From Rosa chinensis (Eukaryota; Streptophyta; Magnoliopsida; Rosales; Rosaceae): a DNA stretch of 64,000 bases. A program made the translations under genes and the position numbers. Under the pieces are notes generated by a model. It worked only from the letters and a program-made list of their open reading frames with translations, was not told the origin of the DNA and ran no database searches. The stretch covers positions 27,564,956 to 27,628,955 of the forward strand of contig NC_037094.1 in assembly GCF_002994745.2 (NCBI RefSeq). Direction: 5' to 3'. Below are positions 19,637 through 48,289 of this stretch, piece by piece (the stretch's first letter is position 1; the number at the start of each line of letters is the position of its first letter).

Positions 19637-19663
19637 TGAAATAAGCAACAACAATACAGACAA

Positions 19664-20312
19664 ATCTCAAAGTAGGCAGCGGAAATAAGACAAACAGAAG
19701 GCTCCAAAAAATAATAGTAACAGATTTTTTTTTTTTTTTTGTGGAACCTGTTAGAATTGACTGGGTTGACCGAGTTTGAGATGAGTTGACTCACTGACCG
19801 AGTTGGGGCGAGTTGACGAGTTGACTCACTGAGGAGCAAACCCGGTCTGATAGAGCGATGGAGAACGCTGACAATCTGGACGACGTTGGCTGAAGAACGA
19901 TGTTGGGTGGACTGCAACTGGACTGGGCTGCGACGAATTGGACGGAGAAGAGTGACGGCGGTCCCTGAAGACGAAGCTGATCGAAGATGAGCGCCGGTGA
20001 TCGTGAACTGAAGATGAAGCCGAGCTGGACGAGGATGAAGCCGATCTGGAAGGGAGACGGAGCCCGCGATCTGAACAGAGGGAGGCGGTCTGAACAGAGG
20101 GAGCCGGTGTGGCCGGGTGGACGGAGCGGACCTGGTTTGGATTGATCGGGAAACAGCACCAGGTCGGTCTCTAAGGAGACGAAGACCAGTATTTGATGAA
20201 GACCGGAAAAAAAAAAAAAGGCAAAACAAAACCCAAACAAAGGGGTTTAGTTATGTATAAGTGTCTCGAAAAAAAAAAGAAAACTAACGAGACAAAGTCC
20301 TTTCGGATCTTT
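19664..20312 (-). other. Copia 5' leader
   Basis: About 650 bp between the primer site and gag, with T/A runs and Arg/Ser-rich open frames (for example 19791-20240) that match no family. Read as untranslated leader. Confidence 0.6.
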
Positions 20313-22301: not shown

Positions 22302-23085
22302 GAGCAACTCCAACAGTTTCTCTATAATATTTGTATCATAGGGAAGCAAAAGTCAAAATTTTTCATAATTTTTTTTCTCCAACTCCAACATATTCCCTAT
22401 TTTACAACAATCTCTAAAATCTTCATAATTCTTCCTTAAAATTTTAGAGATTGCTGTAAATTTATTTAATTTCATTTTCTCTTTCCTCACTATCTTTAAA
22501 ATGATCGAAAATAGTTATAGAGAATCTGTTCGAGCAAAAGAGACTCATTTTTCCTTAAAATAGAGAAAACACTACTAGCAAAAATAGCTATACACACTGA
22601 TTGAAATCAGTGTGTATAAAACCTAATAGCTACTGAAATCTGTATGGGAAGCCCATTGGCTACCCTACACTCACAGATGCTACGTCTGTTCCATTTGGTG
22701 GGGTGGTCTTTGGTCTTCCCCCACTGATAAAAAAATCAGTGTGAGTTTTTTAGTGGGACCCATTAATACTACACATGACACAATTAAAATTAGGGTTAAT
22801 GCTCATACACCCTGATCTAGGCAAAATACTTCCTAGAAACCCCAACAAAATACTTTTGTTCCTCTCCACCCAGACTTCTGTCATTTTCCTTCCTTTTCAC
22901 CCAACTTGTCATCTTTCTCTTCCATCAGTACCCTTCTGATAACTTTTTGCATAGTACGTTTTTTTTTTTTTATGAAACGTGGTGGGCCCATTTTTTATTT
23001 GTTTAAATAGAAGCATGATAAATATTCATCCTCTATCTCAAAGGTAAACAGTACGTTTTTACTATTCATAATTTCGATCGTCGAC

Positions 23086-23319
23086 AGACTTGAATTAGTT
23101 GCTATCTGTAGAAGTACTAGCAAAGAATTACAAAAAGAAAGAGAAAAACTGAGAAAGCTGAAAGCCTATAGAGATAGTCTTAATAGAGCTTCACCTAACT
23201 ATTGGGACATTATTTATAGACTTCATACTAGAATCTATAAAATAGAAGAAGAGATAGAAAATCTCTTATATGTTCTAGAAGAGGAACAAAAACCTCTTGA
23301 TTATTTGAGCATTGGTTAG
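23086..23319 (+). CDS. Small coiled-coil frame of unit A, no ATG
   Basis: A 78-codon open frame of highly charged, heptad-like sequence (KELQKEREKLRKLK; IYKIEEEIENLLYVLEEE) that ends in TAG 14 bases before the primer site. The same frame exists in copies B and C, which argues for selection before integration. No ATG starts it in any copy. A non-AUG start (as in ORF I of rice tungro bacilliform virus) or a spliced leader could supply one. Function unknown. Confidence 0.5.
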   Translation, partial: RLELVAICRSTSKELQKEREKLRKLKAYRDSLNRASPNYWDIIYRLHTRIYKIEEEIENLLYVLEEEQKPLDYLSIG

Positions 23320-23332
23320 ATCCGCACATCAC

Positions 23333-23344
23333 TGGTATCAGAGC
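23333..23344 (+). other. Primer-binding site of unit A
   Basis: TGGTATCAGAGC, complementary to initiator Met-tRNA, lies between the small frame and the polyprotein ATG. Same position in B and C. Confidence 0.9.
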
Positions 23345-23376
23345 TTGTAAAATAGCTCAAGGAGAACCCATCCTTA

Positions 23377-26300
23377 ATGGGGACAATGTCAGAATTGTTA
23401 TTAGAGAAAATAAATTCTCTACTGAAAACTTCTGATGAGAAATATCAGAAGCTGTTACTAGAAATATCTAGATGTCAGTCGACTCTAGAAAAATTACCTG
23501 CTATAATCCACCAATTGGAAAGATTGGAAAACAAACTGGATTATATCAAAGAACTTCCAAAAACGGAAGAAGAAAAACTAACGAGTGTTAGTAGAAAAAT
23601 CAAAGAACAACAAAAAAAGCTAGATTCTATACTAAAGGACAAAAAAGTGCCTACAGTAAAAAAGAAGACTAATAGATTCAAACCATTAAAGAAACCAAAC
23701 TCAAATCGTGTTCCAAACATGATTTTTCTGGAACCATCTACTAGTCAGACTAGTATCCGGTATGAAAACCCAGAAAAAAGAGAAATGAAGATGTTAAGCA
23801 TCTTTGGAAAAAAGAAAGGAGTATAACTCCTGAATTCTGAAGAATTTGAATACAATGAAATCGAGCATGAGGTAAAAAACGCCTCAATTCCAAAGCTAGA
23901 TTTCAAACAGATCTACAGAAGGGGAACATTTGACCTGATGGACAGCCATCACTTCAAAGTACTTGAATTCACAACCCCCTCAACATCTGGAGAGACAGAT
24001 CTCTTGATGATCACTCCAGCGGAAGTTGCCCGAGCACAAGCAAAGAAGTATCAATTTATGCATATTGGAGCAGTCCAAGTCGGCATAAAGCTATTGGCAA
24101 GAGAAGGCATCAACTGTTCAGTCCTATGCGTCCTGCAAGACAACAGACTGACAGACTTCCAAGCTAGTCTGTTGGGAACTCTAGAAGCATCACTGTGCAA
24201 CCAAGTAGCATATTTCAACTGCTTCCCCAACTTCTCAACCAGCCTGAAGGATGCAGCCCACTGTCTCCGACTGAGAGTCAAGACAGATGGCATATCAATG
24301 AAAAATGATATGCAAGAATTGGCGATAGTATACAGAATATACTATAAACTGATGAGCACCACAGTAGAGCCGAAGACACGGATTTCCAACATCCCTGGTC
24401 TCACTACTGGATTCCTCACCAGCCAGAAGAACCATTCACAGCAGATTCACAAAGTTGCTTGGAATGAAGTAACTTTTCCTATTGAATGGAAATTATCCGG
24501 TCCAAAGCTACCAGCAGAAAGTGCAAAAGCAAAAATCTACGAAAGTAGAAGAACTGGAGAAATCAGCCTCAACTTCAACAACCACAGGAAAAGTGATGTC
24601 GGTCCTGAAAATTTCAGGATAAACAACAACCTTCTGAGAATGAGCTACAGCACTAGAGAAGCTAGTGTCAGTGGTACAAAATCCACCATCGAAGAGCCAA
24701 TATCAGAGGAAGATCTGGAAGCTGATCTAAACAGACCAGTCCATATGTTCAGAGCTGAGAGGCTCTATGATCTTTACAAAGAAGCTGAGAATTGTGAAAA
24801 TCCTGAACGATTAGAAAAACTAATCGAAGAAATGAAAGAATTCAAAATCAGAAAGACGAGAAAAGTCTTTCCTTATCAAGATCTTGAAATGGAAGATGGA
24901 GAGAGCTCCAGAACTTTCATTAGCAAAGAAAAAGGGAAAGTAAAACTCCCATTACAGAAAGCCCCCACGGGTAAAAAAGGGGAAAGAAATTCCCAAAGAT
25001 TCGTCCCTGAGGACAATCTGCCAAGAGTTCCGATCACGAACTATGGCATCTGGTTGAATCTAGACAAGAGTCTAGACAAAAGAAAAACCATTGACCAATG
25101 GGTAGATAGCCTAATGATGGCTTCTGCACTTACCCTTGGTAAATTTGAAGCACCAGATTTGCAGGTGTACTATGAGACTACTCTCACAGGAGTGGCAAAA
25201 AAGTACTACCTATCTTTCAAGGAAACTGCCAGAGGAAGAGACTGGCTTGAAGAGATAAAAAATTCCAAGTCTCCGTATGATTTTGCAGTACCCCTGTACG
25301 ATCAGTTCTGTGGAGATCTCTCAAATCTGAGTGAGAAAGCCAAAGAAACGGCAAAGTCGAATATCTATGCTCTCAAAATCTGTGACATGAGATATTTCGA
25401 AGAATACCTGAATGAATTTCAGGAATATTACTGTACAATTGGGGAACTAGAGAATACTGATCTAGTTAATCTGTTGCACAGAAAGCTCCCTGAACCCTGG
25501 AGGACAGCTGTGAGAGAAAGCATAGCTGAGAAACCAATTGAAAGATTTTCAGTTGGACGAATGGCCGACAGAATCCGGCAATTACTGAAGGAGCAATGCA
25601 AAGCCAATCTTAGAGCTAAGATGGCCAAGAAGCAACTCAAAGGAGTTGAAAATTTCTGTTATGGAATATTGGATATGCCCACAAACTGGGGATGCCATGA
25701 ATCCAAATTCCACAAAAAGAAGAAAAAAAATTATTACTCTAAAAAATTCAAAAAGAGTAATCAAAAGAAAGATTGGAAATTCAAGAGAAGTTCCAACTAC
25801 AAGAAACAGCAGGATGAAGATCCTAAGAAGAAGTTCTTCAAGAAAAAGAAGAATTCTCATCAGCATAAACAACAACCGAGCAAGAAAGCTTGCAGATGTT
25901 GGTTATGTAAAGCTGAAGGGCACTATGCCAATGAATGCCCGGAAAAGGATAAAAGATCTACTAAAGCTCTCTTCGAAGAATATGAGCAAATAGTAGAAGT
26001 AGCAAACATGAAAGGCTACGAAATAGCCTATTCTGATGATGAAGAAGATGACAGGTCAGTCTACTCTGCCTGGTCTGAAGATGAAGATTCATCAAAAGAG
26101 TCTGAGAAAGATTCTGAAGAAGAGTACTTCGAATCCAGACAAATGAATGTTTTGAGAATCAAAAACTGGGAAGAAAGCAAGACAGAATCCTTCATGTCTT
26201 CTTATCAGGTGAACCCTGGTACATTCGTTTGTGACTACTGCTTATGTCAGGAAAAGAATGGTCTCCCTATGTTTTGTGAAGAGTCTAAGAAGACTTATCA

Positions 26301-29300
26301 CAAAGAATGCTTCATAGCTGAAGCAAGAAGAAAAACCAAGAATGGTCTTGTCAACCAGTTGGTTGAGCAAGAATATGAAGAGTATTTCGCTGAGCAAAAG
26401 GCGAAAGAAGTTGAAACTCTGTTCCAGGAAACCATGGAACCCTCTTCCTCGAAAAAGGAAGAAATCATCGATGAAGAAAAAATCGATGAAGATATTGAAC
26501 TGGTTGAAATACCAGAAAATGTAAAACTGGTAAAACTACCAGAAACTGTTCATGTCTTAGAACGACAAGAGGATACTGCAACATGGGATCTACTTGGCCA
26601 ACCATCCGGCAAGTTTGATTATAAAGTCAGATATGACCCTCCGTCATGATTCAGTAATCCAGACATCAAAGAGATAATTCCTACAGATTGGGATGATGGT
26701 TCTGACAAATCACCCACTCAGGAAAATATTCCAGAAGAATGTAAACCGTTCATTCCAACAGAACAAGCTCAAGAAAACGAGCTTCATCAATCGAAGGTCG
26801 TCTCTACAAGTAGATACAGCAACTACATAGAGATCGGACTAAAATTCCCAGATCACAGAAAGTATCATCTACATGCCTTTGTAGATAATGGATCGGGATT
26901 TACTGTTGCAAAGAGATTTGCAATTCCAGATGAACTCTGGAAAGAAGATAAGAAAAAATCAGCTACTGGTGTCACATTTGATGGAAGCCATCTCACCATG
27001 AAGATAGTAGCAAAAAATGTTCACATCACCATTGGTGGAGGAACATTCATCATCCCGAATGTTTGGCAATCTGAAGGCCAAGGATCTAATTTCTTGTTGG
27101 GAAATGATTTTATTCTCCAACAAAGATTCATTCAGGATGCAGAAGCGATAGGCTTCAGAAAAGGAGAACGGGTGTTCTGGGCAGACCGACTCACACAGGC
27201 AAAAAGTGTGGTAGGTCCCGGTTTTACTACTCAATATCAGAGATCGCAACAGAATAGTGGTGATCTTACCCCCTACAAACCCAAATTTGAGCCCATACTC
27301 CAAATCAAACAACAAGAAGAGTTGCTTGTTGAAGAATCTTTAGAAGAAGAAGAAACCAGTAAAGATGAAGAAGCTAGTTTCATCCATGAGCACAACCTCA
27401 AGCATTTTCAGAACAAGCTTGAGTCTCAACAAATTCCCACTCTTGAAAAAATCAAGAAACTACTAGAGCAGAATGTTGATACAAATCCTCAGAAGTTTTG
27501 GGAAAAAGACCCAGTGGTCTGTGAATTAAGACTACATGACATGAATGTCATCTGTCATGTCAAACCCATTCCTCAGTACAAAGAGGAAGATCAGAAAGAA
27601 TTCAGAAGTGATATTGAAGATCTCCTGAAGAAGAGATTAATTCAACCTTCCACTAGCCCTCATCATGCTCCAGCATTCTACGTGAGAAATCATGCAGAGA
27701 ATCTACGAGGAAAAGCTAGAATGGTTATTGACTACAGAGATGTCAATAAGAAGACTGTCAAAGACGGTTATCAGATCGCTCAAGTTAGAGTATTGATCAA
27801 CCAGCTCAGAGGAGCTAAAGTCTTTTCGAAATTCGATGCAAAGTCAGGTTTCTGGCAGGTCAAGATGCATCCTGAGAGCATTCCTCTCACTGCATTTGGA
27901 ACGCCTCAAGGTCATTACGAGTGGTTGGTAATGCCTTTTGGTCTAAAGCAAGCTCCCTCAATCTTCCAGAGAAAGATGGACAATATTTTCAAGCATGTAG
28001 TGGAGTTCTGCGTCGTCTACATAGATGACATCCTGGTCTTCTCCAAAAACAGAGAAGAACACATGAAACACCTCCATGAGGTAGTAAAGCTGATAGTTCA
28101 GCATGGAATTATCCTAGGCGAGAAGAAAATCTTCTTTATCCTTGATGAAGTTGATTTCCTAGGGATAAACATCAAGAATGGAGTCATAAAGCTTCAACCA
28201 CATATCCTTGAAAAAATCTGGAAATTCCCAGACAGAATCCCTGATGCTAAGAGTCTAGAGAGATTCCTTGGTGTCATAAATTATGGGAGAGATTTCATCC
28301 CCAAGATCTCGGGGTTAACAGCAATGTTATCTCCTAAGACAAGTTCCAAAAGAAAATGGAACTTCACAGAAGATGATGAAAAGATCGTGAAGCAGATAAA
28401 AAATCTCTGCAAAAACCTCCCTCCTCTTCAACAACCAGAAGAGAATGATGAAATTATCCTCCAGACAAATGCGAGTGATAATTACTGATCCGGTGTTGTT
28501 CTGGCAAGAGCGCCCGGAACTAACATTGAAAAGATCTGCAAATTTTGTAGTGGCAAGTTCAGCCCTGCAGAACTGAATTATCCCACAGGGGAAAAAGAAA
28601 TTTTGGCTGTCAAGAAAACGATTTTAAATTCTCCAGCTTATCTTGGAAAACCCTTTACTGTCCGCACTGATTGTGCAAGAGTAAAGAATTTTAAAAATTT
28701 TAAACTTGACAAAGCTGCTGATAGAGGAAGATTAGCAAACTGGCAATTATTTCTTAACCAATATGATTATACTGTTGAATTAATTGCAGGAAACAAGAAC
28801 TATCTTCCAGACGCATTGACCAGAGAAATGGCAATGTTCAGCCAAAGAGAAGACGACGACGGTCGTAATCCCAGAAGCAGAAGGACTGGGAAAGAACAGG
28901 AACCTGAAGAGGATCCAAAAGAAACCAAGGAAAAAATCCTTAAAAGGTTTCTGCTAAGCTCAAAAGGCTTGGCCTCAACTAATCAATCCCAGGGTAAAGG
29001 ATTGGCTAGCCCGTCTCAAACGGCAGACGGTAAAGGCTCATCAAGACCGTTGACAGCTGCTGCTTTGCCAAAAAGCAGACCAACTCTCAGTGGAGTTATA
29101 AATGTTTTTAATTACGAATTAAGAACTTTTGATACTCCTGTGTTCAGAACTGGCAGGAGACTGGCTTATCACCAGAAGGCAATCCTGGATAATCTCCTAT
29201 TTGCCTTCCAAGAAAGAAGCAGTGGTCTAATGTTCCCGACACTCTTTGCTCTAGCTGAAGAACTTTATGAGAATGCCAGACCACAGACTGAAGAAATCCA

Positions 29301-30138
29301 TATGTAGCAGAGTGCTGTAAGAAAAGAAAAAATTTTCTTCCTTGAAAGTCCAGAAAGTGCTAAGGTCCCTATCATGGCACTTAATGAATCAGATTGGCAT
29401 GAATTCCACAATCTGATAGGAAGGCACAATTCAGAAGACCTGGTTCCTCCAACCCTCTTCATTGTCTTAGGACCATATGTTGGAAGATACCTGGTAAATG
29501 TTCAGAGTGAACATCCCCAAGAACACAAGTTTTGGCTTGTTGAAAATGGTTTTGTCCATAATCTGTGGACCAAAACAAATGATGATCTGAAAGGTTTGCC
29601 GCCCATAATCGTCAACACAGTCAAAAATATCAGAAAGAATGACTGTACACTTCGTCTAAAGTTCAGATCCACTCCTCCAGAATGGATCCAGAAGGCAAAC
29701 GGTGAAGTTGAATATATTTCTCCCTATCATTATGTGAGAATAATCCCAAGGAAATATCTTCAACCAGCCTGTGTAGGGTACAATGGTCAACCAAATTCAA
29801 GCATTCCTTGGATGAAGGCCATGGCCCTGGAATACATGAAAAAGATCATCGCTGAAGATATCAGCAATACCTTCCTGGCAGCAGGAGAGAAAACAATTAT
29901 CACTGCATACGATCATCCTGACGTAGTCAGCAGTGACCTATTCCTATCTCTCACCAGAAAAGAGATAGATTCGACTATGGCATGCATGCACTGGGTGGAA
30001 AAGCTTGAAAATGACAACCACTATAAAATGTATGTCGATACAGATGTCGAAGATAATGCTACCACTGTTAGAATAGCCCAGGCAGACAACAGCTCCTTTG
30101 TCTTTGGCTATCATTCAGAAACAGACGAGAATATGTAG
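23377..30138 (+). pseudogene. Unit A caulimovirid polyprotein, four in-frame nonsense codons
   Basis: One frame of 2254 codons from MGTMSEL to the TAG at 30136-30138, without any frameshift. Domains by codon: coiled coil 1-90; 30K-type movement protein about 188-345 (IGAVQVGIKLLAREGIN); capsid/gag-like region about 548-760; lysine-rich stretch; zinc knuckle CRCWLCKAEGHYANEC about 838; acidic Ser/Glu tract; second Cys cluster about 951-975; protease-like FVDNGSGFTV about 1170; RT with YIDDILVFSKN about 1548; RNase H about 1695-1800; unassigned C-terminus of about 450 residues. Stops lie at 23824-23826 (TAA), 26647-26649 (TGA), 28486-28488 (TGA) and 29305-29307 (TAG); B and C have sense codons there. 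The first RNase H aspartate is also lost (TNASD here, TDASD in B and C). The single-polyprotein layout resembles petuviruses. Non-functional. Confidence 0.92.
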
Positions 30139-30245
30139 CATCACGGGTGAAGCTACAGGTGAAGGAAGAAAAATTCCAAATAAGTAACTGTAGTACTTTT
30201 GACCTTTTAAAAGTTAAAAGCTACTTTTGCTTTCAAAAAGAAGAA
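30139..30245 (+). promoter_or_regulatory. Start of unit A intergenic region, up to the unit B insertion
   Basis: Follows the polyprotein stop and matches the same region of B and C (GTGAAGCTACAGGTGAA). It continues at 38637 after unit B. The last nine bases (30237-30245) are the left AAAGAAGAA of unit B. Confidence 0.75.
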
Positions 30246-30726
30246 GGGGTAATTCCCGCATACCCAAAAATTCTTGGTATTTTTCCCAACTGCCCAACAC
30301 TTTGGTATTTCACTATTGATGAAAGACAAAGACTAACAGGGATAGTTTTAACAAACAAATGCCATCTGTATCCTATGTTGACCTTAGATTCTTCTACCGT
30401 TCTATTCAGTCAAAAGGAAACAATAAAAAACATTAAAACAAAAACAAGACTAGCCTTCAACATGCCACATTTCGCCTAACGACTTCCTGTCTAAACGGCT
30501 ACTCACAGGGCGGAATCACTGCTGCTTGTCCTAATTTTTCTGTTTTAAAACTGATTCTTTTGGCTGAACAGTAAAGCTTTAGAACTTTAGCTTTCCATGG
30601 GATGCATGCATTCGAATGTTCAAACTTTGACATAGTAAACTTATGCATGATAAAGATGATTACAAAATGTAAAGATAATGACATAGATATTTATAAATTA
30701 AAGAAGTGGGTGAACATCCATCTGAA

Positions 30727-30965
30727 TTTATTTATTCAAATATACATATAAAACTTTAAACAATCAGAGCCTCATTCTCAGGTAAACAGCAAAAGCTGTT
30801 TAGCTATCCATAAGAATGAGAACAGTTACTTACTTGTAATGGAAGCACACTACTTCACATCTAAATAGGAAAGGAAGCACACTGCTATTCTATTTTTATT
30901 TTCAGAGAGGTTTTTCTGATCTCAACTTCCAATGCCTTCTAAGAGAAGCTGAAGCTCCATATATA
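30727..30965 (-). promoter_or_regulatory. Unit B promoter and leader: TATA box, hairpin, poly(A) signal
   Basis: On the minus strand: TATATAT at 30965-30959, a long stem-loop at 30820-30771 (outer arms CTCATTCT/AGAATGAG, inner AAACAGC/GCTGTTT), then AATAAATAAA at 30736-30727. Promoter after the last gene and a poly(A) signal about 200 bp downstream is the caulimovirid arrangement for a terminally redundant RNA on a circular genome. In this linear unit it points out of B and into unit A. Confidence 0.7.
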
Positions 30966-31197
30966 GGGAGCGGAACTCAAACTAGAATTCAAATTACAAA
31001 AATGTACAGGACAACTCCGTGACTTCTGCTTTTCGTAGTGCTCCTGCTGGTGGAGGTCGGTCAGGGAAAAGCAAAAGGAAAAAGTGAAATGTTTTTCACT
31101 TAACCTTTTCTTTTTGAAAAGGAAAAAGCAAAAGTAGCTTTAGAAAAGTCTAAAGTTATACAGTTGCTATTTTGGTGCTGATTCTTCACCTGTAGCT

Positions 31198-34100
31198 TCA
31201 CATGTTCTCGTTCGTTTCAGAATGGTGGCCAAAGACAAAGGAGTTGTTGTCTGCCTGGGCCATACGAGTTGTTGTTGCATTATCCTCGACGTCTGTATCA
31301 ACATACATCTTGTAGTGGTTGTCATTTTCAAGCTTTTCCACCCAACGCATGCATGCCATTGTCGAGTCTATCTCTTTTCTGGTTAGAGATAGGAATATAT
31401 CGCTGCTGACTACGTCAGGATGATCGTAAGCAGTGATGATTGTCTTTTCTCCTGCTGCCAGGAATGTGTTGTTGATGTCTTCAGAGATGATCTTTTTGAT
31501 GTAGTCAAGAGCCATGGCCTTCATCCAGGGAATGCTAGAATTCGGTTGGCCGTTGTATGCTACACAGGCTGGTTGAAGATATCTTCTTTGAATAATTCTC
31601 ACATAATGATACGGAGGAATATATTCAACTTCACCATCTGTCTTCTGGATCCATTCAGGAGGTGTGGATCTGAACTTCAGACGAAGCATACAGTTGTCTT
31701 TTCTGATGTTCTTGACCGTGTTGACAATAATAGGCGGCAAGCCTCTCAGATCATCATTAGTTTTAGTCCATAAATTATGGACAAAACCATTTTCAACAAG
31801 CCATAGCTTGTGTTCTTGAGGATGTTCACTCTGAACATTTACCAGGTATCTTCCAACATATGGTCCTGAGACAATAAAGAGGGTTGGAGGAACTAGGTTT
31901 TCAGGATTGTGCCTTCCTATCAGATTATGGAATTCATACCAGTCTGATTCATTGAGTGCTATGATAGGGACCCTAGCACTTTCTGGACTTTCAAGGAAGG
32001 ATAGTTTCTCTTTCCTTACAGCACTCTGCTGTGTATGAAGCTCTTCACCTTGTGGTCTACCATTCTCGTAGAGTTCTTCAGCTAATGCAAACAGAGCTGG
32101 GAACATTAATCCACTGCTTCTTTCTTGAAAGGCAAATAAGAGATTGTCCAGGATTGCCTTCTGGTGATACGCTAGTCTCCTGCCAGTTCTGAACACAGGA
32201 GTATCAAAAGTTCTTAATTCATAATTAAAAACATTTATAACTCCACTAGGAGTTGGTCTGCTTTTTGGCAAAGCAGCAGCCGTCAACGGTCTTGATGTGC
32301 CTTTACCGTCTGCCGTTTGAGACGGGCTAGCCAATCCTTTACCCTGGGATTGATCAGTTGAGGCCAAGCCTTTTGAGCTTAGCAGAAACCTTTTAAGGAT
32401 CTTCTCCTTGGTTTCTTTTGGATCTTCTTCAGATTCCTGTTCTTTCCCAGTCCTTCTGCTTCTGGGATTACGACCTTCGTCGTCTTCTCTTTGGCTGAAC
32501 ATTGCCAGTTCTCTGGTCAATGCGTCTGGAAGATAGTTCTTGTTTCCTGCAATTAATTCAACAGTATAATCATATTGGTTAAGAAACAATTGCCAGTTGG
32601 CTAATCTTCCTCTATCAGCAGCTTTGTCAAGTTTAAAATTTTTAAAATTCTTTACTCTAGCACAATCGGTGCGGACAGTAAAGGTTTTTCCCAGATAAGC
32701 TGGAGAATTTAAAATCGTTTTCTTGACAGCTAAAATTTCTTTTTCCCCTGTGGGATAATTCAGTTCTGCAGGGCTGAACTTGCCACTACAAAATTTGCAG
32801 ATCTTTTCAATGTTAGTTCCAGGCGCTCTCGCCAGAACAACACCGGACCAGTAATTATCACTCGCATCTGTCTGGAGGATAATTTCATCATTCTCTTCTG
32901 GTTGTTGAAGAGGAGGGAGGTTCTTGCAGAGGTCTTTTATCTGCTTCACGATCTTTTCATCATCTTCTGTGAAGTTCCATTTCCTTTTGGAACTTGTCTT
33001 GGGAGATAACATTGCTGTTAACCCTGAGATTCTAGGGATGAAATCTCTCCCATAATTTATGACACCAAGGAATCTCTCTAGACTCTTAGCATCAGGAATT
33101 TTGTCTGGGAACTTCCAGATCTTTTCAAGGATGTGAGGTTGGAGCTTTATGACTCCATTCTTGATGTTTATTCCTAGGAAATCAACTTCATCGAGGATAA
33201 AGAAGATTTTCTTCTCACCTAGGATAATTCCATGCTGGACTATCAGCTTTGTTACCTCGTGGAGGTGCTTCATGTGTTCTTCTCTGTTTTTGGAGAAGAC
33301 CAGGATGTCATCTATGTAGACGACGCAGAACTCCGCTACATGCTTGAAGATGTTGTCCATCTTTCTTTGAAAGATTGAGGGAGCTTGCTTGAGACCAAAA
33401 GGCATTACTAGCCACTCGTAATGACCTTGTGGTGTTCCAAATGCAGTGAGAGGTACACTCTCAGGATGCATCTTGACCTGCCAGAAACCCGACTTTGCAT
33501 CGAATTTCGAAAAGACTTTAGCTCCTCTGAGCTGGTTGATCAGGACTCTGACTTGAGCGATCTGATATCCGTCTTTGACAGTCTTCTTATTGACATCTCT
33601 ATAGTCAATAACCATTCTAGCTTTTCCTCTTAGATTCTCTGCATGATTTCTCACGTAGAATGCTGGAGCATGATGAGGGCTAGTGGAAGGTTGAATTAAT
33701 CTCTTCTTCAGGAGATCTTCAATATCACTTCTGAATTCTTTTTGATCTTCCTCTTTGTACTGAGGAATGGCTTTGACATGGCAGATAGCATTCATGTCAT
33801 GCAATCTCAATTCACAGACCACTGGGTCTTTTTCCCAAAACTTCTGAGGATTTGTATCCACATTCTGCTCGAGTAGTTTCTTGATTTTGTCAAGAGTGGG
33901 AGTTTGTTGAGACTCAAGCTTGTTCTGAAAGTGCTTGAGGTTGTGCTCGTGGATGAAACTAGCTTCTTCATCTTTACTAGCTTCTTCTTCTCCTTCTGAA
34001 GATTCTTCAACAAGCAGTTCTTCTTGTTGTTTGATTTGGAGTATGGGTTGAAATTTGGGTTTGTAGGGGGTAAGATCACCACTATTCTGTTGCGATCTCT

Positions 34101-38006: not shown

Positions 38007-38038
38007 TAAGGAGGGGTTCTCCTTTGAGCCTTTTACAA

Positions 38039-38050
38039 GCTCTGATACCA
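38039..38050 (-). other. Primer-binding site of unit B
   Basis: TGGTATCAGAGC on the minus strand, between the small frame and the polyprotein. Confidence 0.9.
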
Positions 38051-38063
38051 GTTGGGTGCGGAT

Positions 38064-38297
38064 CTAACCAATGCTCAAATAATTCAGAGGTTTTTGTTCC
38101 TCTTCCAGAACATATAGGAGATTTTCTATCTCTTCTTCTATTTTATAGATTCTAGTCTGAAGTCTATAAATAATATCCCAGTAATTGGGAGACTCTCTAT
38201 CAAGGTTGTCTCGATAGGTTTTTAGTTTTCTCAGTTTTTCTCTCTCTTTCTGCAGTTCTTTTAGTAGTATGTTTGCATATAGCAACAAGCTCAAGTC
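38064..38297 (-). pseudogene. Small coiled-coil frame of unit B, frameshifted near its start
   Basis: Equivalent of 23086-23319, with 14 bases between its TAG and the primer site. An extra T in the run near 38266 shifts the first codons relative to unit C. No ATG start. Confidence 0.5.
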
Positions 38298-38636
38298 TGT
38301 CTACAATTGAAATTATGAATAGTAATTTGTACTGTTTACCTTTCGAATTAGAGGATGACTGTCAGCTTCATACATATATTCAAATGAAACAAACTCTGAT
38401 GGGCCCACCACGTTTCTAAAACAACATATATAAATTTATGAAAGAGACATATGCAGATGCAAACTCTAACAGACCAAAACAACAAAGGGGTACTAATGGT
38501 AGAGATTTTGAAAAGACGAGTAGGTAGGAAAGAAAGTGAGAAAAAGTTGTGTAAAAGGGAACAAAAATAATACACTGGGGTGTATGAGAAGTATTTTCCC
38601 AAATTTGGGGTGTATGAGCATTAACCCAAAGAAGAA

Positions 38637-39461
38637 ACACTTCACCTACCAGAAGAAACATTTCACCTACCTGCTTTTGTTTTTCTCTATCCGACCTCCA
38701 CCAGCAGGAGCACTCAGAAAAGCAAAAGTTCACGGAGCTGTCCTGTACATTTTTATGTTTTGAATTCCAGTTTGAGTTTCGCTCTCTATATAAGGAACTT
38801 TAAGTTTCATTTGTAAGGCATCGAAAAATTAAGTAGAAGAGTCTTCTCTCAAAGAGTACGAAAGCCATAGTAGCAGTGTGTTTCCTGTGCTTTCATTACA
38901 AGTAAGTATCCGTTCTCATTCTCATGGGTAGCTAAACAGCCTTTTGCTGTTTACCTGAGGATGAGGCTCTGAATTTCTAGAATGTATTCTGTTGAATAAA
39001 TAAAGGATACCCACCTCTATTTTGTCAAAAAGAAGCAATAGTAAATATCATTTTAATCTGTGTTGCATATTCTATCTATCGCTATCTGTTTCTTAATCCT
39101 GCATTCCAGCTAGAACCATCACTATCTAGTTCTTATAATTATTCTGAAGTTTGAAAAGTCTTTGCCTATCAGAAAAAATCAGTTTTAAAAACTAAAATTA
39201 AGACAAGCAGCAGTGATTCCGCCTGTTAAAGTATCCGTTAGGCAGGGAGCCGTTAGGAGAAAAACTTGGGCATGTTGAAGGCTAGCCTTGTTTTCGTTTT
39301 TGTTTTTTTTATGAAGTTTTTAAAGAAGACAAACACTCTAAAGCTCAGGATAGCATAGGAACTACCCCTTTTAGTCTTTTCACAAAAGAATAGTAAGATA
39401 CATAAATACGTGTGTATCTGAGAAAAATACCTGAAATACCTGGGTAAACGGGAAATAGCCC
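38637..39461 (+). promoter_or_regulatory. Unit A promoter, leader and right end (after unit B)
   Basis: Continuation of unit A: TATATAAG at 38787-38794, stem-loop at 38915-38965, AATAAATAAA at 38995-39004, then leader to the right terminus at 39461. Same order as in B and C but diverged. Transcription would run rightward into unit C, antisense to it. Confidence 0.75.
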
Positions 39462-39954
39462 TTAAAATTATAAGGGGTAATTCCCGCATACCCAAAAATT
39501 CTTGGTATTTTTCCCAACTGCCCAACACTTTGGTATTTCACTATTGATGAAAGACAAAGACTAACAGGGATAGTTTTAACAAACAAATGCCATCTGTATC
39601 CTATGTTGACCTTAGATTCTTCTACCGTTCTATTCAGTCAAAAGGAAACAATAAAAAACATTAAAACAAAAACAAGACTAGCCTTCAACATGCCACATTT
39701 CGCCTAACGACTTCCTGTCTAAACGGCTACTCACAGGGCGGAATCACTGCTGCTTGTCCTAATTTTTCTGTTTTAAAACTGATTCTTTTGGCTGAACAGT
39801 AAAGCTTTAGAACTTTAGCTTTCCATGGGATGCATGCATTCGAATGTTCAAACTTTGACATAGTAAACTTATGCATGATAAAGATGATTACAAAATGTAA
39901 AGATAATGACATAGATATTTATAAATTAAAGAAGTGGGTGAACATCCATCTGAA

Positions 39955-40193
39955 TTTATTTATTCAAATATACATATAAAACTTTAAACAATCAGAGCCT
40001 CATTCTCAGGTAAACAGCAAAAGCTGTTTAGCTATCCATAAGAATGAGAACAGTTACTTACTTGTAATGGAAGCACACTACTTCACATCTAAATAGGAAA
40101 GGAAGCACACTGCTATTCTATTTTTATTTTCAGAGAGGTTTTTCTGATCTCAACTTCCAATGCCTTCTAAGAGAAGCTGAAGCTCCATATATA
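39955..40193 (-). promoter_or_regulatory. Unit C promoter and leader
   Basis: TATATAT at 40193-40187, stem-loop at 40048-39999 and AATAAATAAA at 39964-39955, identical in layout to unit B. Transcription would run leftward across the end of A and then enter unit B in sense. Confidence 0.7.
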
Positions 40194-40425
40194 GGGAGCG
40201 GAACTCAAACTAGAATTCAAATTACAAAAATGTACAGGACAACTCCGTGACTTCTGCTTTTCGTAGTGCTCCTGCTGGTGGAGGTCGGTCAGGGAAAAGC
40301 AAAAGGAAAAAGTGAAATGTTTTTCACTTAACCTTTTCTTTTTGAAAAGGAAAAAGCAAAAGTAGCTTTAGAAAAGTCTAAAGTTATACAGTTGCTATTT
40401 TGGTGCTGATTCTTCACCTGTAGCT

Positions 40426-43400
40426 TCACATGTTCTCGTCCGTTTCAGAATAGTGGCCAAAGACAAAGGAGTTGTTGTCTGCCTGGGCCATACGAGTTGT
40501 TGTTGCATTATCCTCGACGTCTGTATCAACATACATCTTGTAGTGGTTGTCATTTTCAAGCTTTTCCACCCAACGCATGCATGCCATTGTCGAGTCTATC
40601 TCTTTTCTGGTTAGAGATAGGAATATATCGCTGCTGACTACGTCAGGATGATCGTAAGCAGTGATGATTGTCTTTTCTCCTGCTGCCAGGAATGTGTTGT
40701 TGATGTCTTCAGAGATGATCTTTTTGATGTAGTCAAGAGCCATGGCCTTCATCCAGGGAATGCTAGAATTCGGTTGGCCGTTGTATGCTACACAGGCTGG
40801 TTGAAGATATCTTCTTTGAATAATTCTCACATAATGATACGGAGGAATATATTCAACTTCACCATCTGTCTTCTGGATCCATTCAGGAGGTGTGGATCTG
40901 AACTTCAGACGAAGCATACAGTTGTCTTTTCTGATATTCTTGACCGTGTTGACAATAATAGGCGGCAAGCCTCTCAGATCATCATTAGTTTTAGTCCATA
41001 AATTATGGACAAAACCATTTTCAACAAGCCATAGCTTGTGTTCTTGAGGATGTTCACTCTGAACATTTACCAGGTATCTTCCAACATATGGTCCTGAGAC
41101 AATAAAGAGGGTTGGAGGAACTAGGTTTTCAGGATTGTGCCTTCCTATCAGATTATGGAATTCATACCAGTCTGATTCATTGAGTGCTATGATAGGGACC
41201 CTAGCACTTTCTGGACTTTCAAGGAAGGATAGTTTCTCTTTCCTTACAGCACTCTGCTGTGTATGAAGCTCTTCACCTTGTGGTCTACCATTCTCGTAGA
41301 GTTCTTCAGCTAATGCAAACAGAGCTGGGAACATTAATCCACTGCTTCTTTCTTGAAAGGCAAATAAGAGATTGTCCAGGATTGCCTTCTGGTGATACGC
41401 TAGTCTCCTGCCAGTTCTGAACACAGGAGTATCAAAAGTTCTTAATTCATAATTAAAAACATTTATAACTCCACTAGGAGTTGGTCTGCTTTTTGGCAAA
41501 GCAGCAGCCGTCAACGGTCTTGATGTGCCTTTACCGTCTGCCGTTTGAGACGGGCTAGCCAATCCTTTACCCTGGGATTGATCAGTTGAGGCCAAGCCTT
41601 TTGAGCTTAGCAGAAACCTTTTAAGGATCTTCTCCTTGGTTTCTTTTGGATCTTCTTCAGATTCCTGTTCTTTCCCAGTCCTTCTGCTTCTGGGATTACG
41701 ACCTTCGTCGTCTTCTCTTTGGCTGAACATTGCCAGTTCTCTGGTCAATGCGTCTGGAAGATAGTTCTTGTTTCCTGCAATTAATTCAACAGTATAATCA
41801 TATTGGTTAAGAAACAATTGCCAGTTGGCTAATCTTCCTCTATCAGCAGCTTTGTCAAGTTTAAAATTTTTAAAATTCTTTACTCTAGCACAATCGGTGC
41901 GGACAGTAAAGGTTTTTCCCAGATAAGCTGGAGAATTTAAAATCGTTTTCTTGACAGCTAAAATTTCTTTTTCCCCTGTGGGATAATTCAGTTCTGCAGG
42001 GCTGAACTTGCCACTACAAAATTTGCAGATCTTTTCAATGTTAGTTCCAGGCGCTCTCGCCAGAACAACACCGGACCAGTAATTATCACTCGCATCTGTC
42101 TGGAGGATAATTTCATCATTCTCTTCTGGTTGTTGAAGAGGAGGGAGGTTCTTGCAGAGGTCTTTTATCTGCTTCACGATCTTTTCATCATCTTCTGTGA
42201 AGTTCCATTTCCTTTTGGAACTTGTCTTGGGAGATAACATTGCTGTTAACCCTGAGATTCTAGGGATGAAATCTCTCCCATAATTTATGACACCAAGGAA
42301 TCTCTCTAGACTCTTAGCATCAGGAATTTTGTCTGGGAACTTCCAGATCTTTTCAAGGATGTGAGGTTGGAGCTTTATGACTCCATTCTTGATGTTTATT
42401 CCTAGGAAATCAACTTCATCGAGGATAAAGAAGATTTTCTTCTCACCTAGGATAATTCCATGCTGGACTATCAGCTTTGTTACCTCGTGGAGGTGCTTCA
42501 TGTGTTCTTCTCTGTTTTTGGAGAAGACCAGGATGTCATCTATGTAGACGACGCAGAACTCCGCTACATGCTTGAAGATGTTGTCCATCTTTCTTTGAAA
42601 GATTGAGGGAGCTTGCTTGAGACCAAAAGGCATTACTAGCCACTCGTAATGACCTTGTGGTGTTCCAAATGCAGTGAGAGGTACACTCTCAGGATGCATC
42701 TTGACCTGCCAGAAACCCGACTTTGCATCGAATTTCGAAAAGACTTTAGCTCCTCTGAGCTGGTTGATCAGGACTCTGACTTGAGCGATCTGATATCCGT
42801 CTTTGACAGTCTTCTTATTGACATCTCTATAGTCAATAACCATTCTAGCTTTTCCTCTTAGATTCTCTGCATGATTTCTCACGTAGAATGCTGGAGCATG
42901 ATGAGGGCTAGTGGAAGGTTGAATTAATCTCTTCTTCAGGAGATCTTCAATATCACTTCTGAATTCTTTTTGATCTTCCTCTTTGTACTGAGGAATGGCT
43001 TTGACATGGCAGATAGCATTCATGTCATGCAATCTCAATTCACAGACCACTGGGTCTTTTTCCCAAAACTTCTGAGGATTTGTATCCACATTCTGCTCGA
43101 GTAGTTTCTTGATTTTGTCAAGAGTGGGAGTTTGTTGAGACTCAAGCTTGTTCTGAAAGTGCTTGAGGTTGTGCTCGTGGATGAAACTAGCTTCTTCATC
43201 TTTACTAGCTTCTTCTTCTCCTTCTGAAGATTCTTCAACAAGCAATTCTTCTTGTTGTTTGATTTGGAGTATGGGTTGAAATTTGGGTTTGTAGGGGGTA
43301 AGATCACCACTATTCTGTTGCGATCTCTGATACTGAGTAGTAAAACCGGGACCGGCCACACTGAATGCATGTGTGAGGCGGTCAGCCCAGAACACCCGTT

Positions 43401-46400
43401 CTCCTTTTCTGAAGCCTATCGCTTCTTCATCCTGAATGAATCGTTGTTGGAGAATAAAATCATTGCCCAACAAGAAATCAGATCCTTGGCCTTCAGATTG
43501 CCAAACATTCTGGATGATAAATGTTCCTCCACCAATGGTGATATGAACATTTTTTGCTACTTTCTTCATGGTGAGATGGCTTCCATCAAATGTAACACCA
43601 GTAGCTGACTTTTTCTTGTCTTCGTTCCAGAGTTCTTCTGGAATTGCAAATCTCTTTGCAACAGTAAAACCTGATCCATTATCTACAAAAGCATGTAGAT
43701 GATATTTCCTGTGATCAGGGAACTTGAGTCCGATCTCTATGTAGTTGCTGTATCTACTTGTAGAGACGACTTTCGATTGGTGAAGCTCATTTTCTTGAGC
43801 TTGTTCCGTTGGAATGAATGGTTTACATTCTTCTGGAACATTTTCCTGAGTGGGTGATTTGTCATCATCATCCCAATCTGTAGGAGTTATCTTCTTGCTG
43901 TCTGGATTACTGAACCAGGGGGGAGGATCATATCTGACTTTGTAATCAAACTTGCCGGAAGGTTGGCCAAGTAGATCCCATGTACCAGTATCCGCAGCTA
44001 TCTCTTGTCTTTCTAAGAGATGAACATTTTCTGGTATTTCAACCAGTTCAATATCTTCATCGATTGTTTCTTCACCGATGATTTCTTCCTTTATTTCTGA
44101 GGAAGATGGTTGTTCCATAGTCGTTTCTTGGACTACAGTTGTTGCAACATTCTTTGTTTGTTCCATGGTTTCCTGGAACAGAGTTTCAACTTCTTTCGCT
44201 TTTTTCTCAGCGAAATACTCTTCATATTCTTGCTCAACCCATTGGCTGACAAGACCATTCTTGGTTTTTCTTCTTGCTTCAGCTATGAAGCATTCTTTGT
44301 GATACGTCTTTTTAGACTCTTCACAGAACATAGGGAGACCATTCTTCTCGTGACATAAACAGTAGTCACAGACGAATGAACCAGGGTTCACCTGATAAGA
44401 AGACATGAAGGATTCTGTCTTGCTTTCTTCCCAGTTTTTGACTTTCAAAACGTTCATTTGTCTGGATTCGAAGTACTCTACTTCAGAATCTATCTCAGAC
44501 TCTTCTGATGAACTTTCTTCTTCTTCAGACCAGGCAGAATAGACTGACCTGTCGTCATCTTCATCATCAGAATAGGCTATTTCGTAGCCTTTCATGTTTG
44601 CTATCTCTACTATTTGCTCATATTCTTCAAAGAGAGCTTTAGTAGATCTGTTACCCTTTTCTGGGCATTCATTGGCATAGTGCCCTTCAGCTTTACACAA
44701 CCAACATCTGCAAGCTTTCTTGCTAGGTTGTTTATGCTGCTGAGTATTCTTCTTTTTCTTGAAGAATTTCTTTTTTGGATCTTCATCCTGTTGCTTCTTG
44801 TAATTGGAGCTCTTCTTGAATTTCCAATTCTTTCTCTGATTACTCTTTTTGAATTTTTAGAGTAATATTTTTCTTTTTTCTTCTTTCTGTGGAATTTGGA
44901 TTCATGACATCCCCAGTTAGTGGGCATATCCAGTATTCCGTAACAGAAATTTTCAACTCCTTTGAGTTGCTTCTTGGCCATCTTAGCTCTAAGATTGGCT
45001 TTGCATTGCTCCTTCAGTAGTTGCCGGATTCTGTCGGCAATTCCTCCAACTGAAAATCTTTCAATTGGCTTTTCAGCTATGCTTTCTCTCACAGCTGTTC
45101 TCCATGGTTCAGGGAGCTTTCTGTGCAACAGATTAACTAGATCAGTATTCTCTAGTTCACCAATTGTACAGTAATATTCCTGAAATTCATTCAGGTATTC
45201 TTCGAAATATCTCATGTCACAGATCTTGAGAGCATAGATATTCGACTTTGCCGTTTCTTTGGCTTTCTCACTCAGATTTGAGAGATCTCCACAGAATTGA
45301 TCGTACAGGGGTACTGCAAAATCATACGGAGACTTTGAATTTTTTATCTCTTCAAGCCAGTCTCTTCCTCTGGTAGTTTCCTTGAAGGATAGGTAGTACT
45401 TTTTTGCTACTCCGGTGAGAGTAGTTTCATAGTACACCTGCAAATCTGGTGCTTCAAATTTTCCAAGGGTCAGTGCAGAGGCCATCATCAGGCTATCTAC
45501 CCATTGGTCAATAGTTTTTCTTTTGTCTAGACTCTTGTCTAGATTCAGCCAGATGCCATAGTTCGTGATTGGAACTCTTGGCAGATTGTCCTCGGGGACG
45601 AATCTTTGAGAATTTCTTTCTCCTTTTTTACCCGTGGGGGCTTTCTGAACTGGGAGTTTTATTTCCCTCGTTTCTTTTTTATGAAAGTTCTGGAGCTTCC
45701 TCCTTCTTCCATTTCAACATCTTGGTAAGGAAAGACTTTTCTTGTCTTTCTGCATTTGAATTCTTTCATTTCCTCGATTAGTTTTTCTAATCGTTCAGGA
45801 CTTTCACAATTCTCAGCTTCTTTGTAAAGATCATAGAGCTTCTCAGCTCTGAGCATATGGACTGGTCTGCATAGATCAGCTTCCAGATCTTCTTCTGATA
45901 TTGGTTCTTCAATAGTGGGTTTTGTACCACTGACACCGGCTTCTCTGGTGCTGTAGCTTCTTCTCAGAAGATTGCTGTTTATCCTGATGTTTTCAGGACA
46001 GACATCACTTTTCCTGTGATCTTCAAAGTTGAGGCTGATTTCTCCAGTGCGTCTACTCTCGTAGATCTTTGCTTTTGCTCTTTCCGGCAGCCTTTTTGGA
46101 CCGGACAGTTTCCATTCAAGAGGAAAAGTTACTTCATTCCAAGCAACCTTGTGAATCTGCTGTGAATGGTTCTTCTGGTTGGTGAGGAATCCAGTAGTGA
46201 GACCAGGGATGTTGGAGATCCTTGTCTTTGGTTCCACTGTGGTGCTCATCAGTTTATAGTATACTCTGTATACTATTGCCAATTCTTGCATTTCTTCTTT
46301 CATTGAGATCCCGTCTGTCTTGACTCTCAGTCTGAGGCAGTGGGCTGCATCTTTCAAGCTGGTTGAAAAGTTGGGGAAGCAGTTGAAATATGCTACCTGG

Positions 46401-47233
46401 TTGCATAATGATGCTTCTAAAGTCCCAAACAGACTAGCTTGGAAGTCTGTCAGTCTGTTGTCTTGCAGGACACATAGGACTGAACAGTTGATGCCTTCTC
46501 TTGCCAATAGTTTTATGCCGACTTGGACTGCTCCAATGTGCATAAATTGGTATTGCTTTGCTTGTGCTCTGGCAACTTCAGCAGGGGTGATCATCAAGAG
46601 ATCTGTTTCTCCTGTTGTTGAGGGGGTTGTGAATTCAAGTATTTTGAAATGATGGCTGTCCATCAGGTCAAATGTTCCCCGTCGGTAGATCTGTTTGAAA
46701 TCTAGCTTTGGAATTGAGGAGTTTTTTACCTCATGCTCGATTTCATTGTATTCAAACTCTTCAGAATTTAGGAGTTGAACTCCTTTCTTTTTTCCAAAGA
46801 TGCTTAACATCTTCATTTCTCTTTTTTCTGTATTCTCCGGATTTTCATACCGGATACTAGTATGACTAGTAGATGGTTCCAGAAAAATCATGTTAGGAAC
46901 ACGATTTGAGTCTGGTTTCTCTAATGGTTTGAACCCATTAGTCTTCTTTTTTACTGTAGGCAATTTCTTGTCCTTCAGTATAGATTCCAGCGTTTTTTGC
47001 TGTTCTTTGATTTTTCTACTGACACTTGTCAGTCTTTTTTCTTCCGTTTTTGGAAGATCTTTGATATAATCCAGTTTGTTTTCCAATCTTTCTAATTGGT
47101 GGATTATAGCAGGTATTGTTTCTAGTGTCGACTGACATCTAGATATTTCTAGTAACATCTTCTGATATTTCTCATCAGAAGCTTTTAGTAGAGAATTTAT
47201 CTTCTCTAGTAACAATTCGGACATTGTCCCCAT
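40426..47233 (-). pseudogene. Unit C caulimovirid polyprotein, two frameshifts
   Basis: Nominal length 2269 residues, domains as in A and B. Three frame segments: 47233 to about 45670 (coiled coil, movement protein), about 45670 to 44855 (capsid), and 44855 to 40426 (zinc knuckle, second Cys cluster, protease-like, RT, RNase H, C-terminus). Each break is a one-base loss in a T run (about 45675-45680 and 44853-44857) relative to unit B. The G run that is short in B is full length here, so the protease-to-capsid linkage is continuous. No nonsense codons. Sequencing error in homopolymers is a real alternative for both breaks. Confidence 0.92.
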
Positions 47234-47265
47234 TAAGGAGGGGTTCTCCTTTGAGCCTTTTACAA

Positions 47266-47277
47266 GCTCTGATACCA
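47266..47277 (-). other. Primer-binding site of unit C
   Basis: TGGTATCAGAGC on the minus strand, same context as in A and B. Confidence 0.9.
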
Positions 47278-47290
47278 GTTGGGTGCGGAT

Positions 47291-47524
47291 CTAACCAATG
47301 CTCAAATAATTCAGAGGTTTTTGTTCCTCTTCCAGAACATATAGGAGATTTTCTATCTCTTCTTCTATTTTATAGATTCTAGTCTGAAGTCTATAAATAA
47401 TATCCCAGTAATTGGGAGACTCTCTATCAAGGTTGTCTCGATAGGTTTTTAGTTTTCTCAGTTTTTCTCTCTCTTTCTGCAGTTCTTTAGTAGTATGTTT
47501 GCATATAGCAACAAGCTCAAGTCT
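47291..47524 (-). CDS. Small coiled-coil frame of unit C, no ATG, intact
   Basis: 78 codons from the conserved RLELVAIC to a TAG before the primer site. The frame remains open upstream for about 27 more codons to a TGA, with no ATG. A CAG at the exon-like edge (GTAGACAG, also present in A) could be a splice acceptor. Charged and heptad-rich; function unknown. Confidence 0.5.
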   Translation of the reverse strand, partial: RLELVAICKHTTKELQKEREKLRKLKTYRDNLDRESPNYWDIIYRLQTRIYKIEEEIENLLYVLEEEQKPLNYLSIG

Positions 47525-48289
47525 GTCTACATTTGAAATTATGAATAGTAATTTGTACTGTTTACCTTTCGAATTAGAGGATGACTGTCAGCTTCATACA
47601 TATATTCAAATGAAACAAACTCTGATGGGCCCACCACGTTTCTAAAACAACATATATAAATTTATGAAAGAGACATATGCAGATGCAAACTCTAACAGAC
47701 CAAAACAACAAAGGGGTACTAATGGTAGAGATTTTGAAAAGACGAGTAGGTAGGAAAGAAAGTGAGAAAAAGTTGTGTAAAAGGGAACAAAAATAATACA
47801 CTGGGGTGTATGAGAAGTATTTTCCCAAATTTGGGGTGTATGAGCATTAACCCAAATTATAATTATAGTTGATACTTGACATCAGTGTGAACTGATGTAT
47901 TTTCTACGGGGATCCATCTCTACACATATACAATTAAGGATATCATTTTAGCAATTTTGTTTTTCTTAATTTACTTTAAAGATTAATTAATATAATCACA
48001 ATTAGTGATAATAATTTCCTGAGTCAAATCCCATGAGATAATATTCTTTTTTAGTCATAATTTCCAGATTTGTTCAGATGTGTTCTTCAGCAAGCATCAT
48101 CCGCTTCATTGTCATCAGATCCCAGATCCATAGAGATCGATCTGAATCTAGTGTTTCTTTCATTCCTGCTAGTAAACAAACAATAGTAAGAAGTTACCAA
48201 ATAAGTATAATATCAATTCAAAATGAGGTGATGAATTTATGCCTTTACCTGGAGATCTGGATCAATGAAGAACGAGTTACCATTCTGGC

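What the first reader, a model, noticed from the sequence alone, without database searches (positions are those of the whole stretch)
22784..47862. Three endogenous pararetrovirus units with fixed ends, inverted termini and perfect 9-bp target duplications
Seen: units A, B and C each begin GGGTTAATGCTCATACACCC and end at the same place, with inward-read right ends GGGCTATTTCCCGTTTACCC (A) or GGGGTAATTCCCGCATACCC (B, C), an imperfect inverted repeat of about 20 bp. Each has its own exact 9-bp duplication: TTAAAATTA, AAAGAAGAA, AAATTATAA. Known: caulimovirids lack integrase, and their genomic copies normally have irregular ends and no TSD; 9-bp TSDs with GGGTTAA-like ends are typical of Mutator-like elements. 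Inference: a pararetrovirus genome was captured by, or evolved into, a DNA-transposon-like unit that has moved at least three times. I know of no described equivalent.
Basis: partly seen in the sequence, partly recalled or inferred. Interest (0 to 1): 0.96.

Follow-up and report, generated by a model that had tools for sequence, protein, structure and literature searches.

The report
Pararetrovirus inserted like a jumping gene
In a plant genome that is likely a rose's, copies of a virus of the cauliflower mosaic virus family start and stop at the same two points and most checked ones carry an exact 9-letter repeat of host DNA on both sides, so they were likely inserted by the machinery of Mutator-type jumping genes and not by accidental DNA repair.

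Summary
Units A, B and C have the stated ends and exact 9-bp duplications. In the window's own genome (515 Mb, likely Rosa) the 20-bp left end occurs 209 times. I checked the first 36 listed places plus A, B, C: a right end was found for 32 of 39, and of these 27 have an exact 9-bp duplication, 2 have 8 of 9, 3 have none; mispaired flanks match exactly in 4 of 992. The cargo has the caulimovirid gene order (MP, CP, protease, RT, RNase H). Five coding pieces are under purifying selection between A and B (dN/dS 0.09-0.17), as are RT and MP pieces among copies. So the ends most likely travel with a replicating virus lineage, not with passive captured cargo. Predicted promoter and poly(A) signals lie at the right end, after the ORF, as in a circular genome opened inside its leader. 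Best reading: virus DNA inserted by Mutator-type transposition, probably by a host MULE transposase. No MULE with the same ends was seen in the little I could inspect, so the enzyme is unidentified.

The parts
22784..22792 (.). left 9-bp target duplication of unit A (TTAAAATTA)
22793..22812 (+). left end of unit A, 20 bp
22793..39461 (+). unit A, interrupted by unit B
23333..23344 (+). tRNA-Met-type primer binding site of A, 540 bp inside the left end (motif recalled)
23356..30138 (+). A coding region (MP, CP, weak zinc knuckle, protease A3, RT, RNase H, orphan C-terminal part); split by in-frame stops
30237..30245 (.). left-hand copy of B's duplication (AAAGAAGAA), inside A
30246..38627 (-). 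unit B, 8382 bp, inserted in A just past A's ORF
30246..30265 (+). right end of B (inward-read GGGGTAATTCCCGCATACCC)
30731..30736 (-). AATAAA in B, 491 bp from the right end; predicted poly(A) signal
30959..30965 (-). TATATAT in B, 720 bp from the right end; predicted core promoter, downstream of the ORF
31198..38063 (-). B coding region in two overlapping frames (1134 and 1166 aa)
31201..32571 (-). C-terminal 457 aa after RNase H: no Pfam match; the matching piece of A shows dN/dS 0.09 against B
38039..38050 (-). primer binding site of B
38608..38627 (-). left end of B
38628..38636 (.). second copy of B's duplication
39442..39461 (-). right end of A (inward-read GGGCTATTTCCCGTTTACCC)
39462..39470 (.). 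right 9-bp duplication of A
39465..39473 (.). first copy of C's duplication (AAATTATAA), overlapping A's
39474..47853 (-). unit C, 8380 bp, 99.7-100% identical to B in 13 of 14 pieces and 98% in one
39474..39493 (+). right end of C
40426..47290 (-). C coding region in three frames
47266..47277 (-). primer binding site of C
47834..47853 (-). left end of C
47854..47862 (.). second copy of C's duplication

Best explanation
These are integrated copies of a caulimovirid (likely a zendovirus) whose DNA, apparently opened at one fixed point of its leader, was likely inserted by Mutator-type transposition, probably by a transposase that the host's own MULE transposons supply. Shown: both fixed ends in 32 of 39 units examined, 9-bp duplications in A/T-rich targets, viral gene content and order, and purifying selection on RT and MP among copies. 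Predicted from sequence signals: promoter and poly(A) site lie after the ORF, so a genome-length RNA would be made only when the two ends are joined, that is from a circle. Inferred: the virus multiplies as a circle by reverse transcription; in the nucleus a MULE-type transposase recognises the two ends, which would lie back to back in the circle (or at the tips of a linear form), and inserts the unit with a 9-bp stagger; copies then decay in place.
For: Ends and duplications: (27 of 32 exact, 29 of 32 with at most one mismatch; control 4 of 992). Exact 9-mers are 95% A+T against 69% in the 21 nt outside the left end. A and B share the left 20-mer exactly while positions 21-150 are about 64% alike (83 of 130 columns). 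Genes and order. Selection: A against B 0.09-0.17 in five coding pieces; 253 pairs of RT pieces 0.07-0.17 by distance class; 231 pairs of MP pieces 0.13-0.32. Primer site 541-620 bp from the left end in A, B, C and 7 of 8 fetched loci. AATAAA 448-509 bp before the right end in 24 of 24 stretches longer than 510 bp; TATA-like motif 675-741 bp before it in 7 of 8 stretches longer than 725 bp. 0 of 49 left ends examined have a right end within up to 60 nt outside, so these are not tandem or permuted copies. MULE precedent for GGG...CCC, 9 bp, TA-rich targets: PMC9168764 (passages). MULE transposase genes are common here: all 150 scored of 816 candidates match PF10551.
Against: No MULE with the same ends was found in 30 MULE loci with about 1.5 kb each side, though their ends were mostly out of view. 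Inverted ends are short and imperfect (11-15 of 20), unlike long-TIR MULEs. 3 of 32 units lack the duplication and 7 of 39 lack a right end in the stretch fetched. No circular form was seen. Places were found by an exact left-end match, which favours young copies and makes the constancy of the left end partly a matter of how they were sought. Close pairs rest on few changes (RT 3 synonymous and 2 nonsynonymous; MP 3 and 5, 6 and 8). B against C in their longest shared frame shows 2.5 synonymous and 6.5 nonsynonymous changes, so a recent hop of one from the other is not excluded.
Confidence: 0.7

Rival explanations
1. Pack-MULE-like capture: a MULE once took up a whole viral genome and the unit has since hopped from chromosome to chromosome as passive cargo.
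For: Ends and duplications are those of a transposon; B and C are almost identical and adjacent; in B against C the longest frame shows no excess of synonymous change.
Against: Passive cargo would drift neutrally, but ratios are 0.07-0.17 in every RT distance class and 0.13-0.19 in every MP class but the closest (0.32, two pairs), and 0.09 in the orphan C-terminal part of A against B.
Confidence: 0.12
2. The virus lineage encodes its own integration enzyme or end-binding factor, for example in the ~400-aa C-terminal orphan domain.
For: The domain has no Pfam match; a search limited to proteins of about 900-2900 aa found it in 8 proteins (query included), all from Fragaria x ananassa, and the Rosa protein P0002 has it too; dN/dS 0.09 between A and B.
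Against: No family match to a nuclease; structure models are of very low confidence (mean pLDDT 35.1 and 34.5), so they speak neither for nor against.
Confidence: 0.13
3. Ordinary endogenous pararetrovirus: accidental capture by end joining or by an LTR-retrotransposon integrase.
For: These are the two widely held views for the family (PMC10377300 section 3.1).
Against: Both fixed ends in 32 of 39 units and 9-bp duplications in 29 of 32 (one mismatch allowed); LTR integrases leave other ends and 4-6 bp (recalled); no integrase domain found.
Confidence: 0.02

Closest known systems
Endogenous zendoviruses of Rosaceae (Caulimoviridae)
   Same: Host group: Zendovirus-01 is confined to Potentilleae and Roseae, with ten identical RT sequences in Rosa chinensis (PMC9794742, passages), and zendoviruses make up 60.85% of strawberry endogenous pararetroviruses (PMC11359110, passages). 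The RT groups with Fragaria proteins at 100/99 support.
   Different: The passages seen mention no fixed ends, inverted termini or target duplications. No labelled zendovirus RT was available to me, so membership is likely, not tested.
Mutator-like elements, e.g. Abermu (PMC9168764, passages)
   Same: GGG...CCC ends, mostly 9-bp duplications, TA-rich targets.
   Different: No transposase domain found in the unit, short imperfect inverted ends, and the cargo is a viral genome under selection.
Teratorn (herpesvirus fused with a piggyBac transposon; PMC10175614, passages)
   Same: A virus with transposon ends and so a precise route into the genome.
   Different: Herpesvirus, TTAA targets, transposase gene carried inside; here a reverse-transcribing virus with no recognisable transposase.
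Petunia vein clearing virus and other petuviruses
   Same: One long polyprotein with these domains and integrated copies (recalled).
   Different: An integrase-like core has been claimed there (PMC10741241, passage and reference title); precise ends with 9-bp duplications were not mentioned in what I saw.

Membership tests
Caulimoviridae | MP, CP, aspartic protease, RT, RNase H | tested here: met
Caulimoviridae | no integrase, no LTR | tested here: met
   no integrase match in the pieces; no long direct repeat between the ends of B
Caulimoviridae | tRNA-Met primer binding site | tested here: met
   (motif recalled)
Caulimoviridae | RT within the family tree | tested here: met
   27 rows
Caulimoviridae | circular DNA genome outside the chromosome | not testable with these tools
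   only inferred from the order of signals
Zendovirus | RT groups with labelled zendovirus sequences | tested here: inconclusive
   groups with Fragaria proteins, but none of them is labelled zendovirus
Mutator-like elements | target duplication of 7-12 bp, often 9 | tested here: met
   definition from PMC9168764
Mutator-like elements | terminal inverted repeats | tested here: inconclusive
   20 bp, 11-15 of 20 matching; short for the family
Mutator-like elements | MURA-type transposase inside (autonomous elements) | tested here: not met
Mutator-like elements | autonomous partner in the same genome with the same ends | tested here: inconclusive
   30 MULE loci seen in part
Pack-MULE | captured cargo not needed for spread (neutral) | tested here: not met
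LTR retrotransposon | LTRs, integrase, 4-6 bp duplication (size recalled) | tested here: not met

The most novel reading that the evidence does not exclude
A reverse-transcribing plant virus lineage with a regular proviral stage made by a DNA-transposon reaction: its circular genome carries a back-to-back pair of Mutator-type ends in the RNA leader, and a viral protein (perhaps the orphan C-terminal domain) recruits or replaces the transposase, so that it is at once pararetrovirus and DNA transposon.
Probability: 0.2. Interest if true: 0.97.

Novelty: new variant of a known kind. Interest (0 to 1): 0.9.

Why it matters
How caulimovirids enter plant chromosomes is called speculative in a 2023 review of the field (PMC10377300 section 3.1, read). 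Here is a family of copies with a precise, testable signature that points to a DNA-transposon reaction. If right, a pararetrovirus can have a true proviral stage without an integrase, plant genomes hold a virus-transposon partnership comparable to Teratorn in fish, and the large zendovirus copy numbers of roses and strawberries may have a mechanism.

Tried and rejected
Tandem or permuted integration of circular DNA: not seen, 0 of 49 left ends examined have a right end within up to 60 nt outside; a genome-wide search for the joined ends did not complete. Self-encoded nuclease: two structure predictions of the C-terminal part were useless (mean pLDDT 35.1 and 34.5), so no fold search was made. 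Viral contigs: a protein scan matched 21 stretches, none confirmed, and a left-end scan found none. A repeat of the end motif about 30 bp further in is only suggestive (shuffles that reach the observed value, of 5000: B left 55, B right 104, unit 3 left 3788, unit 3 right 75). Mapping A's two flanks of B separately on contiguous relatives gave overlaps of 10, 10, 10, 22 and 2 bp in 5 sequences, at 70-86% identity: compatible with one copy of the 9-mer, but weak, and B and C are not independent. In one search the value for C2 against B1 (0.53) looks like an alignment artefact at a frame break and was set aside. In one search matches to the inner copy of the end motif were discarded before right ends were chosen; units 1, 6, 7 and 8 had been given a second fetched stretch after the first look.
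Full report
What is there. Three units of about 8.3-8.4 kb lie at 22793-47853. B sits inside A and C in A's right-hand duplication; each has its own exact 9-bp duplication. A without B and one duplication copy is 8278 bp by arithmetic. In 600-base pieces of B, C is 99.7-100% identical in 13 of 14 and 98.0% in one, which holds 12 of the mismatches; A is 88-96% identical in 10 of the 11 pieces from 600 to 7200 bases inside the left end, 79% in the other (a gapped stretch), and about 75-83% nearer the two ends.

Content. Coding pieces match, in order, viral movement protein, caulimovirus coat domain, a weak zinc knuckle (below Pfam's cut-off), A3 protease, reverse transcriptase and RNase H, followed by some 457 aa with no Pfam match. 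A is split by in-frame stops, B has one frame break and C two. A search with residues 1250-1651 of a Fragaria relative, limited by the tool to proteins of about 900-2900 aa, found 8 proteins including the query, all from Fragaria x ananassa; the Rosa protein P0002 (720 aa) also carries that part. In a tree of 27 rows the RT forms a 100/99 group with three Fragaria proteins among the caulimovirids. That Rosa chinensis protein is 92% identical over 88% of the query; with 515 Mb in the assembly the host is likely a Rosa, probably R. chinensis. Zendoviruses are the abundant caulimovirids of this plant group: Zendovirus-01 is confined to Potentilleae and Roseae, with ten identical RT sequences in R. 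chinensis (PMC9794742, passages), and zendoviruses make up 60.85% of those in strawberries (PMC11359110, passages).

The ends in the whole genome. The exact left 20-mer occurs 209 times, the reversed control pattern 0 times; 100 places are listed. The first 8 places, seen with 1.5 kb on each side, all run into viral leader, and in 7 of 8 the similarity covers at least 695 of B's first 700 bp; one is interrupted. For the first 36 listed places I have left flanks and stretches of 1-2.5 kb around the expected right end. With A, B and C that is 39 units. A right end, chosen by motif without regard to the duplication, was found in 32; 27 have an exact 9-bp duplication, 2 one mismatch, 3 none (numbers 5, 8 and 32). 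Seven had no right end in the stretch (6, 7, 17, 23, 28, 30, 36). Left flanks paired with other units' right flanks match exactly in 4 of 992. Duplicates abutting both ends number 27 at length 9, against 4 at 8 and 4 at 10. The exact 9-mers are 95% A+T, the 21 nt outside the left end 69%; T stands first in 22 of 27; four are homopolymers. Lengths without A run 7822-9174 bp, median 8383, and there are 14 right-end variants. In the 29 pairs with at most one mismatch there are 2 mismatches in 261 positions, which suggests mostly young insertions; the exact left-end search favours such copies.

Not passive cargo. Between A and B dN/dS is 0.14 (MP and CP piece), 0.09, 0.09, 0.09 (C-terminal part) and 0.17 (N-terminal piece). 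For 20 of the first 26 sampled units I fetched an RT piece and an MP piece. With A, B, C all 253 RT pairs give 0.07-0.17 by class of distance; 231 MP pairs (unit 14 dropped for a gap) give 0.13-0.32, the 0.32 resting on two pairs. Pairs overlap, but 11 disjoint pairs pooled give 0.11 for RT and 0.18 for MP. The 41 RT pairs with dS under 0.05 give 0.17 and 0.07 in their two classes; each rests on few changes (for example 3 synonymous and 2 nonsynonymous), and some of the closest MP pairs have 3 and 5 or 6 and 8, so part of their difference may be decay after insertion. B against C gives 13 synonymous and 5 nonsynonymous changes in one frame and 2.5 and 6.5 in the longest. Taken together, most divergence among copies likely arose in a replicating lineage that needed its polymerase and its movement protein, and insertions followed. 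That fits a virus and speaks against a transposon that captured a viral genome once. The B/C patch fits recombination; gene conversion is possible.

Circle opened in the leader. The primer site is 541-620 bp from the left end in A, B, C and 7 of 8 fetched loci (one mismatch allowed in 87). In B the TATA-like motif is 720 bp and AATAAA 491 bp before the right end, on the coding strand and after the ORF. AATAAA lies 448-509 bp before the right end in 24 of 24 stretches longer than 510 bp, and the TATA-like motif at 675-741 bp in 7 of 8 longer than 725 bp. So promoter, poly(A) signal, leader and primer site follow one another only if right end and left end are joined. This is a prediction from sequence signals; no RNA and no circle was seen. 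None of 49 left ends examined (36 sampled and 13 on C3) has a right end within up to 60 nt outside.

Enzyme. GGG...CCC ends, mostly 9-bp duplications and TA-rich targets are those of Mutator-like elements such as Abermu (PMC9168764, passages). This genome has many MULE transposase genes: all 150 scored of 816 candidates match. None of the 30 fetched loci shows the viral ends within about 1.5 kb (only short weak matches), but MULE ends were mostly out of view, so this is inconclusive. The units themselves show no MULE domain. Hence the enzyme is inferred, not shown.

Literature. Searches of the open PMC library listed no paper that I could see to describe a caulimovirid with inverted ends or target duplications, judged from titles, abstract starts and passages; one search listed 20 of 730 papers, the others all they found. 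I read section 3.1 of PMC10377300 whole and passages of it and of PMC11359110, PMC9794742, PMC4241990, PMC5766536, PMC13308828, PMC10741241, PMC10175614 and PMC9168764. That review names break repair and LTR-retrotransposon machinery as the two widely held views and mentions a suggested hijack of a transposon-derived integrase, so the general idea has been voiced. Subscription papers were not searched.

Verdict. The ends and duplications are firm, the viral selection well supported; Mutator-type transposition is the best-supported mechanism; a host transposase in trans is judged more likely than a viral one; the joined-end circle is inferred.

Noticed in passing
window 15497-19666 (-): Open 1390-aa Ty1/copia polyprotein with a primer binding site near 20313 (-), perhaps a recent LTR retrotransposon.
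   Followed up: no
window 1510-3675 (-): DUF4283 and zf-CCHC_4 matches in neighbouring open frames, of the kind found in plant LINE-type elements (family link recalled).
   Followed up: no
window 13075-13734 (-): Tetraspanin family match, likely a host gene piece.
   Followed up: no
L117 1-278 (G000:C3:38958700-38959900): A unit's left end abuts viral sequence about 150 nt past an ORF end: apparently a second insertion into that region of a fellow unit, like B in A; its right end was not fetched.
   Followed up: partly
roughly window 38051-38330 (-) and 23090-23330 (+): A short reading frame just upstream of the primer binding site looks conserved between A and B (read by eye); its selection was not measured.
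   Followed up: no
P0122 (Fragaria x ananassa, 2186 aa, 28 member sequences): A long polyprotein relative with 28 members in the database, perhaps a sign of high copy number in strawberry too.
   Followed up: no
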